Shown one piece after another: positions 42,901 through 45,900 of a stretch of 64,000 bases of DNA. The stretch spans positions 14,264,348 to 14,328,347 of the forward strand of contig CAIIXF020000006.1 in NCBI GenBank assembly GCA_903813345.2, given 5' to 3'. Each line of letters opens with the position of its first letter. Position 1 is the first letter of the stretch. A program made the position numbers and the translations under genes. Source of the DNA: Owenia fusiformis. Lineage: Eukaryota; Annelida; Polychaeta; Sabellida; Oweniidae. The notes beneath the pieces were generated by a model. It was not told where the DNA came from. It saw only the letters and a list, made by a program, of their open reading frames with translations, and searched no databases.

Positions 42901-45900
42901 CTGTCTGCTCCAAAAAAACATGACACCTACACATCCATTTAACCAAATACTCTAGGTCTTCATCTATAGCTATTTAATATAGGGATTAATTTTTGTGATT
43001 TCAGACGTCAATTCTTCCGTCTGCTCCAGAAATAGACCCTGACATTATGACAACTATGTGCTCGTTACAATGTTTTAAGGACAGAGAAAAGTTGGTGCAA
43101 GCGTTACTTAGTTCAAGGTAAGTAGAGACCACCTCTGCAAAGTAGAATGGAAGCATATAAACTAATAAAAGGAAGAAGAGTAAATGTTTATTTTGATTTA
43201 CATTATGTATATTTAAGGATTTAAGCCCTGGACTCAGTGCATTGTGGAGTGAATCATTCCTCTGAAGGTGTTGTTTTCAATTCTTTGCTTGACCATGCAG
43301 CGGGAATGCAAAGTTTAGGAAACAACGCCCAAGTGGAATGAATCAGCCATGATGCATAAGTCTTGGTCTTAAATTCTTTTCTTACATTGTGAAATATTTT
43401 ACACAATAAAAAAGATATGAAAGGACTTAAAATAATATTCAAAGAAATCTTTTGCAAGGGTCAAGTATGCAAAGCATCAATTTCAATCTGTAGAGTCAAA
43501 TTGGCACCTTGACAACCATTGTAGAATGACCTTGGGTGCAATGATTGGTTGTATAATGCAACTTGCTGTCATATGAAATACTTCCAATTAGCTGGAATCA
43601 GACATACCTTGCCTAGTTACGCGTGAATTACTCAGATGCGAGTTGGTAGTTACCAGTTTCGCCACCAGGTGGCTGATTCGGGGGAATTAACATGGCAGAG
43701 TATTACAAAATTCCCTTAAACTTGAATATGCATCAGTTTTAATGGTTCACTTTTCATATTACCTTTATGTATCTGAAAGTTGATAAACTCTTTTCAAAAC
43801 CACATTTCTAAATGTAATTTTACATGTAGATTCCAAATATGACATCAGTGTGAATTATTAATGACGTAAATCAAGATTATTTCTACTCGCATCTGGGATA
43901 TTAGGCATGAGAAGGTTGTTTATTTCAGGCATTATTGTTTATGTCAACCATAATGCAGAAAATGTTGTATATTTCAAACATAATTCAGAAAAGGTTATAT
44001 ATTTCAGGCAGAATACAGAAAAGGTTGTATATATCAGGCATTATACAAAAAAGGTTGTATATGTCAACCACAATGCAGAAAATGTTGTTTATTTCAGGCA
44101 TAATACAGAAAAGGCTGTATATTTCAGGCATTGTACAAAAAAGGTTGTATATGTCAATCATAATGAGGAAAATGTTGTATATTTCAGGTATAATACAGAA
44201 AAGGTTGTATATTTTAGGCATAATACAAAAACGGTTGTATATGTCAACCATAATGTAGAAAATGTTGTATATTTCAGGCATAATACAGAAAAGGTTGTAT
44301 ATTTCAGGCATTATACAAAAAAGGTTGTATATGTCAACCATAATGCAGAAAATGTTGTATATTTCAGGCATAATACAGAAAAGGTTGTATACTTCCTTCT
44401 CCTGGATAGAAAGTTACGTAATCCATCGCTGGATGATGGAGAGGATATCAAAACTAAAACAGAATCAGGTGAACAATATTTTTATTCAACATTAGATCAT
44501 GAAGTATTGCAGCTTACAAATTGCTGGTTCATTTTTTTTCACATTTGTATAATGAAGGGATTTTATGTCATTAAATTCAAAGTATTTGTAAACTGCTGTA
44601 AGATAACATGCTGAATGAAACATGAATCTAATGTGGTTCCATAATTACCTAACTGCTTGCACCAGGAGCTAGCAGATCCCAAATGTTAAATGTATCTATA
44701 TCTAAGTTGCAGCCGATCCACCAAGGAAGAGGATAGATACAGTGCAGTTAAATGGTTCTCCTAGGTACGTATTTTATCAATATAATTCGGCGCCGTTTCG
44801 GCACCGCAAAAATTTGGCACTGTTCCGGCACCATTTCGACACCAAAATTTGCCATCAGACTAGTCAGTCCATTTGGTGACAAAACGGCACCGAAATTTGG
44901 CATCAAAATGGCGTCGAAAATCATATTACATTTTAGGGGTGTATCCGACACTGTCATTCTTAATTGCTGATAACATACAGACAGCAGCTGTCATTCTGTT
45001 ACAAAATTTAAAAATAAAACATTTTACAGAAGAATGATGTCATCAATAGCTCCAGATAAAATCCAATATGTGTCATGTGTTTCATTTATTTGTCATCCTC
45101 ATAACTCTAGAAATACAGCCCCAATATTACTTATGTATTTCTGCATCAAGTGTAATCAAATGTAAATTAAAGTTAGATATGATAACAAATATGTTTTGTT
45201 CTGTGCTATTTACTACTTTGTGAAGTTGCATTTTTCTTGTAACTAGGATCCAAAGTTGAAAATAAAAGGAGTAAAACATGTCTGGGAATTTTCATAATCA
45301 TGAGGGTGTATTTGCTGTAAAAATTGCATGAACACCTTTTGGGGGAATTGTGAGAATTTATTTTATTTTTTCATTGCAGGCTATCTCTGGGTAACATTAG
45401 CGAAGGTTCTCCCATTGCTCCAAGGAGGGCACTAACAGTCCACAGAATGTAAGTTCCCCTAGTGGACCTTGTATAATAATGCAGATGTTTAAAATAGCCC
45501 AATGGGTCTTTACTTAACCAGAATTATTGCCATAATCATAGGCTGGTAATACCCTTTGGTAGAAATTACAATCTGAGTCCAAAACAGGCCTTTTAGATTA
45601 TTACAGAGCAACGCCAAGGAATTCTCTTAATATTGTTAGTCCTCTCATAGGCGCTTTGGGTTAGTAAGTTTGAATGCAGAATATCATTATTTGAAGATCT
45701 TTTGTACTGCACAAGTTCATCTTGACATTCAGAGCTTTGCATTATAAAAGGAATGATAATAAACACACAAAAAAGAACAAATATAGCTATTTAAAGAATT
45801 AGAATCATTTTCCTTTTTTAATTATTTTTTTTCAAGTTCATATATTATAACAATTAATATCATACAATGAAAACTCAACAAGGTTAATCAATAATCAATA

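What the first reader, a model, noticed from the sequence alone, without database searches (positions are those of the whole stretch)
43922..44390. A 3' splice site plus exon start amplified in frame: possible length-variable UBA-like domain
30-bp units repeat tatttcag|gca...EKVV, the acceptor and first codons of exon w11. Candidate acceptors are offset by multiples of 30, and the frame is open through the array. Choosing an upstream one inserts decapeptide repeats ([10 protein letters not shown] type) between the two halves of the UBA-like domain without breaking the reading frame. Exon sequence gtatacttc resembles the intron end gtatatttc, which suggests how the first duplication arose.
Basis: partly seen in the sequence, partly recalled or inferred. 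Interest (0 to 1): 0.85.

Follow-up and report, generated by a model that had tools for sequence, protein, structure and literature searches.

The report
Splice-acceptor minisatellite in a BRSK gene
A short stretch covering the end of an intron and the start of an exon has been copied about 15 times in tandem in a SAD-type kinase gene; it is probably a harmless 'mirage' repeat of a kind first described in lancelets, which this lophotrochozoan genome carries at splice junctions of at least a dozen other genes, rather than a device for making proteins of different length.

Summary
A 30-bp array (43935-44395, 15.4 copies, 90-bp higher-order period) repeats "tatttcag|gcataatacagaaaaggttg", the acceptor and first codons of a BRSK/SAD-kinase exon. 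Its frame is open, and eight upstream acceptors lie in frame with the canonical one at 44368. Nothing supports use of those copies as alternative exons. Substitutions among units look neutral (12 nonsynonymous, 6 synonymous, 0 stops; expected 13.2, 4.1, 0.65). A second copy of the locus, probably the other haplotype, has lost one 90-bp block and gained 5 bp that break the frame. The same gene has a non-coding 37-bp array of 12 (29 in copy 2) tandem donors starting exactly at another exon's end. Elsewhere in this genome, 14 of 16 sampled arrays carrying splice motifs abut a coding-like exon (8 with solid Pfam support), with no bias to periods divisible by three (5/16 counting both BRSK arrays). 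This matches the "mirages" of amphioxus, which reportedly do not disturb splicing, but the genome is lophotrochozoan (Lox5 with KLTGP). Best reading: a mirage, with the exon-proximal acceptor mainly used. The decapeptide isoforms remain untested and unlikely.

The parts
43005..43117 (+). BRSK exon w10: N-terminal two thirds of the UBA domain, donor AAG|gtaagt
43935..44395 (+). 30-bp x 15.4 array (90-bp higher-order unit) spanning the 3' splice junction; unit = tgtatatttcag|gcataatacagaaaaggt
43919..43928 (+). decayed 5'-most acceptor copy tttatttcag, in a different phase from the exon
44008..44308 (+). eight upstream in-frame AG|G acceptors; would-be exon starts 44008, 44038, 44098, 44128, 44188, 44218, 44278, 44308
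43865..44480 (+). open frame through the array into the exon (decapeptides such as [10 protein letters not shown]); no evidence of use
44368..44468 (+). BRSK exon w11 from the canonical acceptor: UBA helix 3 ([15 protein letters not shown]), donor CAG|gtgaac
42871..42925 (+). decayed duplicate of the acceptor plus start of exon w10
   Evidence: score 52, 0 of 1000 shuffles
38951..38999 (+). BRSK exon whose donor is amplified
38998..39442 (+). 37-bp x 12 array of donors (AG|GTAAGTCATC...), starting exactly at that exon's end; read-through has stops and shifts frame

Best explanation
The array is a junction-spanning minisatellite, a 'mirage'. A 30-bp block covering the last ~10 nt of the intron and the first ~20 nt of the exon was tandemly duplicated, probably primed by the similarity of exon ttgtatacttc to intron-end ttgtatatttc exactly 30 nt apart, and then grew by unequal exchange, later in 90-bp blocks. 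The gene tolerates it because the exon-proximal copy stays intact and the extra copies lie in the intron, where exon definition normally makes the outermost (3'-most) acceptor, 44368, the one used. The frame is open because a 30-bp unit without stops stays open until mutation breaks it, not because the peptide is selected. Shown: array anatomy, identity of the canonical junction, unit divergence that fits neutrality, a length and frame difference between two copies, recurrence at other splice junctions of this genome. Inferred: the duplication mechanism, that copy 2 is the other haplotype, and predominant use of 44368 in RNA.
For: Ungapped UBA_BRSK and PDB match with acceptor 44368. Unit substitutions N12/S6/stop0 against neutral 13.2/4.1/0.65, P(no stop) about 0.5. 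Second copy: minus one 90-bp block and +5 bp frameshift, while about 1124 coding nt show only 3 differences, all synonymous by codon position. AG absent from a third of the units, so acceptors are not protected. Sister donor array, 37 bp, 12 versus 29 copies, non-coding. Sixteen arrays carrying splice motifs sampled elsewhere: 8/8 donor and 6/8 acceptor arrays abut coding-like exons and extend into the intron; Pfam over cut-off for UGDH, USP, Muted/BLOC1S5, Cep192, COPA/B and M17 peptidase exons, and E<1e-3 for FANCI and CRAL-TRIO exons. Periods divisible by 3 in 5 of 16 (those 14 plus the two BRSK arrays), as chance. Amphioxus mirages have the same anatomy and haplotype length differences, and are reported not to disturb splicing.
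Against: No RNA data. The upstream acceptors have almost the same local context as the canonical one, so leaky use is plausible. The array shows only 1 substitution in 370 aligned bases between copies against 9 in 816 in the adjoining intron, a weak hint of lower divergence that homogenisation or chance could also give.
Confidence: 0.82

Rival explanations
1. Alternative acceptors in the array are routinely used and insert 20-120 residues of decapeptide repeat between helices 2 and 3 of the UBA domain, tuning SAD-kinase autoinhibition.
For: Eight in-frame acceptors with near-identical context; open frame; the repeated peptide copies the start of UBA helix 3, the helix that contacts kinase helix C (PMC4686854); a tandem array of splice sites in human UBC does give a variable number of units (PMC10809524).
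Against: No sign of coding constraint; frameshift and stop in copy 2; same kind of array at donors and in other genes without frame; amphioxus mirages reported not to alter mRNA; single-sequence structure prediction found no fold (pLDDT 33, weak evidence).
Confidence: 0.08
2. The redundant acceptors leak: a few per cent of transcripts use an upstream site, giving low-level, unselected length variants. This is a sub-case compatible with the mirage reading.
For: Near-identical local acceptor context; products stay in frame in copy 1, so nonsense-mediated decay would not remove them.
Against: No RNA data; published amphioxus RT-PCR saw regular splicing.
Confidence: 0.3
3. An assembly artefact: the array or the second copy is misassembled.
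For: The second copy lies in tandem 37 kb downstream, lacks the upstream kinase exons and looks like a retained haplotig.
Against: Both copies hold the array with distinct but related content and no N; similar arrays occur at many other loci.
Confidence: 0.04

Closest known systems
[quoted passage not shown]
   Same: Unit spans an exon-intron boundary, at 5' or 3' junctions; many but not all units carry AG/GT; repeat number differs between haplotypes; homogenised units with less homogenised edges.
   Different: Here the host is a lophotrochozoan, not a lancelet; unit 30 bp and in frame; two such arrays in one gene. Absence of effect on splicing was reported there and is untested here.
Dual-specific splice-site array of human polyubiquitin UBC (PMC10809524)
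   Same: Tandem array of splice sites in a repeat whose length is a multiple of 3, with a potential length ladder.
   Different: In UBC each unit is a coding monomer and its site serves as donor and acceptor; here the 30-bp units carry acceptors only (one unit happens to read AG|GT) and no use is known.
Potato RdRp intron gain by tandem duplication across an intron-exon boundary (PMC4974935)
   Same: Duplicate holds the 3' end of an intron and the 5' end of the next exon.
   Different: One duplication that produced a used new intron; here some 15 copies and no evidence of a new exon or intron.
BRSK1/2 (SAD) kinase UBA domain, PF21115; structures 4ynz/4yom
   Same: Ungapped 43/43 match when spliced at 44368.
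   Different: Array-derived insertions would fall between helices 2 and 3; I know of none in BRSK.

Membership tests
Mirage (junction-spanning minisatellite) | tandem array whose unit spans an exon-intron boundary | tested here: met
   unit contains acceptor and exon start; last copy is the real exon start
Mirage (junction-spanning minisatellite) | many but not all units carry a splice signal | tested here: met
   nine AG|G sites including the canonical one; VN-type units have none
Mirage (junction-spanning minisatellite) | repeat-number instability between haplotypes | tested here: met
   one 90-bp block fewer in copy 2; donor array 12 versus 29. That copy 2 is a haplotype is inferred
Mirage (junction-spanning minisatellite) | normal splicing is not disturbed | not testable with these tools
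   no RNA data
Mirage (junction-spanning minisatellite) | somatic instability (reported at amphioxus Adh3) | not testable with these tools
   no read data
Mirage (junction-spanning minisatellite) | known host range: cephalochordates | tested here: not met
   Lox5 homeodomain followed by EKLTGP, a lophotrochozoan mark. Host range is not a structural definition, so this extends the class
Dual-specific splice-site array (UBC type) | each unit boundary usable as donor and acceptor (AG|GT) | tested here: not met
   units read CAG|GCAT; only one (44188) reads CAG|GTAT. The 37-bp donor array does read tatag|gtaagt
BRSK/SAD kinase | BRSK-type UBA domain | tested here: met
   PF21115 90.2 bits against cut-off 27
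Length-variable alternative exon | upstream acceptors used in RNA | not testable with these tools
   no transcript data
Length-variable alternative exon | coding constraint on the repeat | tested here: not met
   N/S as neutral, frameshift in copy 2. The test is weak, with 18 substitutions

The most novel reading that the evidence does not exclude
The acceptor array is used: spliceosomes pick among up to nine equivalent in-frame acceptors, giving SAD kinase with 0-120 extra residues made of copies of the start of UBA helix 3, so that array length, which varies between alleles, sets kinase autoinhibition.
Probability: 0.08. Interest if true: 0.8.

Novelty: new member of a known kind. Interest (0 to 1): 0.5.

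Why it matters
Mirages were reported, in the papers I could read, as a lancelet peculiarity tied to intron gain. Here a lophotrochozoan genome carries them at donors and acceptors of many ordinary genes, two in one kinase gene. Arrays of near-identical, competing splice sites are a natural experiment on how the spliceosome chooses among equals: since most of these arrays would break the frame if an inner copy were used, the exon-proximal copy should win nearly always, which RNA-seq of this species could test at many loci at once. They are also candidate intermediates for new introns and shifted exon borders.

Tried and rejected
Coding selection on the repeats: N/S and stop counts fit neutrality. 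An open array as proof of function: another forward frame has only one stop over the same array, and P(no stop) is about 0.5. A mobile or dispersed repeat: the unit is not found elsewhere in the genome. Arrays at junctions being over-represented within this gene: 2 of 32 junctions lie in arrays against 12 expected from random rotation, so arrays avoid exons overall (that control ignores exon constraint). True tandem half-gene duplication for copy 2: disfavoured, because its exons show only synonymous changes although it lacks the upstream kinase exons. Structure prediction of the array peptide: uninformative. The host being amphioxus: GFP search negative but uncontrolled; Lox5 with KLTGP decided against. 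COX1 search for the mitochondrion found nothing. Cross-species comparison of orthologues was not possible: no other animal genomes are held.

Full report
What is there. Joining exon 43005-43117 to 44368-44468 gives a full-length, ungapped UBA_BRSK match (PF21115, 43/43, E 9.7e-26) and aligns without gaps to BRSK2 in PDB 4ynz. That fixes 44368 as the ancestral acceptor.

The array. TRF gives 30 bp x 15.4 copies at 43935-44395 and a 90-bp higher-order period. Three unit types alternate: a [10 protein letters not shown], b [10 protein letters not shown], c [10 protein letters not shown]. Types a and b end in ttcagg, an acceptor; type c ends in gtcaac and has none. There are eight upstream acceptors in phase with 44368, and their -20..+3 context is 21-24 of 24 identical to it. 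The 5' edge is decayed and its outermost acceptor is out of phase. The exon's gttgtatacttc and the last intron copy's gttgtatatttc are 30 nt apart; since the exon copy encodes the conserved VYF of BRSK, this short homology is plausibly what seeded the first duplication (inference).

Is it coding? Against the type consensus, 14 units carry 18 substitutions: 12 nonsynonymous, 6 synonymous, no stop. Random substitution would give 13.2, 4.1 and 0.65; P(no stop) is 0.41-0.52 and P(S>=6) 0.21. Another frame of the array has one stop only. The open frame therefore needs no selection. The test is small and cannot exclude weak constraint.

A second copy. Window 34384 to about 69565 (window coordinates continued downstream) is repeated directly after itself, mostly at 90-98% identity with kilobase indels. 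It starts in an intron and lacks the upstream kinase exons, yet ten exons (about 1124 nt) differ at three sites only, 43079 AAG>AAA, 44398 CTT>CTG and 50840 TTC>TTT, all third positions and synonymous by my reading of the frame, against 9 differences in 816 nt in the adjoining intron (P(<=3) 0.0017). Such constraint is not expected of a headless half gene, so I take it for the other haplotype left in the assembly. There the acceptor array lacks one 90-bp block and has a 5-bp insertion that shifts the frame and brings a stop, leaving 66 open codons and four upstream in-frame acceptors.

The sister array. In the same gene, a 37-bp array begins exactly at the donor of exon 38951-38999: first unit CAG|gtgagtcatc..., then eleven tatag|gtaagtcatc.... 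Copy 1 has 12 donors, copy 2 has 29 in two blocks. Reading past the first donor meets stops, and 37 is not a multiple of 3. A decayed duplicate of the acceptor and start of exon w10 lies at 42871-42925. Splice-junction arrays thus form in this gene without coding use.

Genome-wide. Patterns of three close copies of a donor motif (AGGTAAGT) or an acceptor motif (TATTTCAGG) gave 450 and 185 matches. Composition-matched scrambles gave 37 (AGGATAGT) and 8 (TATTTGAGC); the reversed patterns gave 362 and 8. Single TATTTCAGG is 2.9 times as common as its reverse (12616 versus 4326). Matches are not independent loci and the reversed donor control is high, so I do not claim a hot spot. I read 16 of these loci. 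All eight donor arrays begin at the end of a coding-like exon and six of eight acceptor arrays end at the start of one, in each case extending into the intron. Pfam identifies the exons over its cut-off for UDP-glucose dehydrogenase (L060), ubiquitin hydrolase (L058), Muted/BLOC1S5 (L061), Cep192 (L057), COPA/B (L050) and M17 peptidase (L053), and at E<1e-3 for FANCI (L059) and CRAL-TRIO (L054); for the others support is weak or absent (the L057 query carried six extra residues typed in error at its start, of which at most one enters the match). Of these 14 periods plus the two BRSK arrays, 5 of 16 are divisible by 3, as chance. So for most of these arrays use of an inner copy would break the protein, which implies that the exon-proximal site is the one used (inference).

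Known kind. [quoted passage not shown] the PGBD5 paper adds that Adh and TnC mirages do not generate aberrant mRNAs (PMC3902484). The original Adh paper was not held. The present genome has a Lox5 homeodomain followed by EKLTGP, a lophotrochozoan signature by general knowledge, so it is not a lancelet. I found no report of mirages outside cephalochordates in the library, which holds open-licence papers only.

If it were used. SAD UBA helix 3 makes the main contact with kinase helix C (PMC4686854). The array encodes copies of the start of that helix, and insertions would fall just before it. A folding run on the array peptide was uninformative.

Noticed in passing
window 38998-39442; copy 2 in L003 about 7697-9914: 37-bp array of 12 (29 in copy 2) tandem 5' splice sites starting exactly at a BRSK exon's donor; each unit reads tatag|gtaagt, so it could act as donor and acceptor (a recursive or dual-specific site).
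   Followed up: partly
G000 loci L048-L051, L053-L062: Junction-spanning minisatellites at splice donors and acceptors of many genes (UGDH, USP, Muted, Cep192, FANCI, COPA/B, M17 peptidase, CRAL-TRIO and others), extending into the intron.
   Followed up: partly
window 34384-64000 and on to G000:C6 about 14365000: The 3' part of the gene is present twice in tandem with only synonymous coding differences: probably a retained haplotig in the assembly.
   Followed up: yes
L003 about 8360-9400: In copy 2 the donor array is split by a ~1-kb insert with inverted ends (gtgtcccaaaaaaaaggaaaccagc ...), apparently a DNA transposon.
   Followed up: no
window 42871-42925: Decayed duplicate of the acceptor and start of exon w10; in copy 2 it is ~590 bp further from the exon.
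   Followed up: partly
window 55701-60800: A 2.7-kb segment is tandemly doubled in copy 1 (55701.. and 58439..) but single in copy 2.
   Followed up: no
window 10812-21500: A 10.7-kb array of a 38-bp unit, part of it inverted (20218-20726), near a BRSK exon region and inside an intron.
   Followed up: no
G000:C3:15100021, 15111110, 15122722: The same 41-bp acceptor array of an M17-peptidase-like gene occurs at three places ~11 kb apart, so the gene is probably in tandem copies with the array duplicated along.
   Followed up: no
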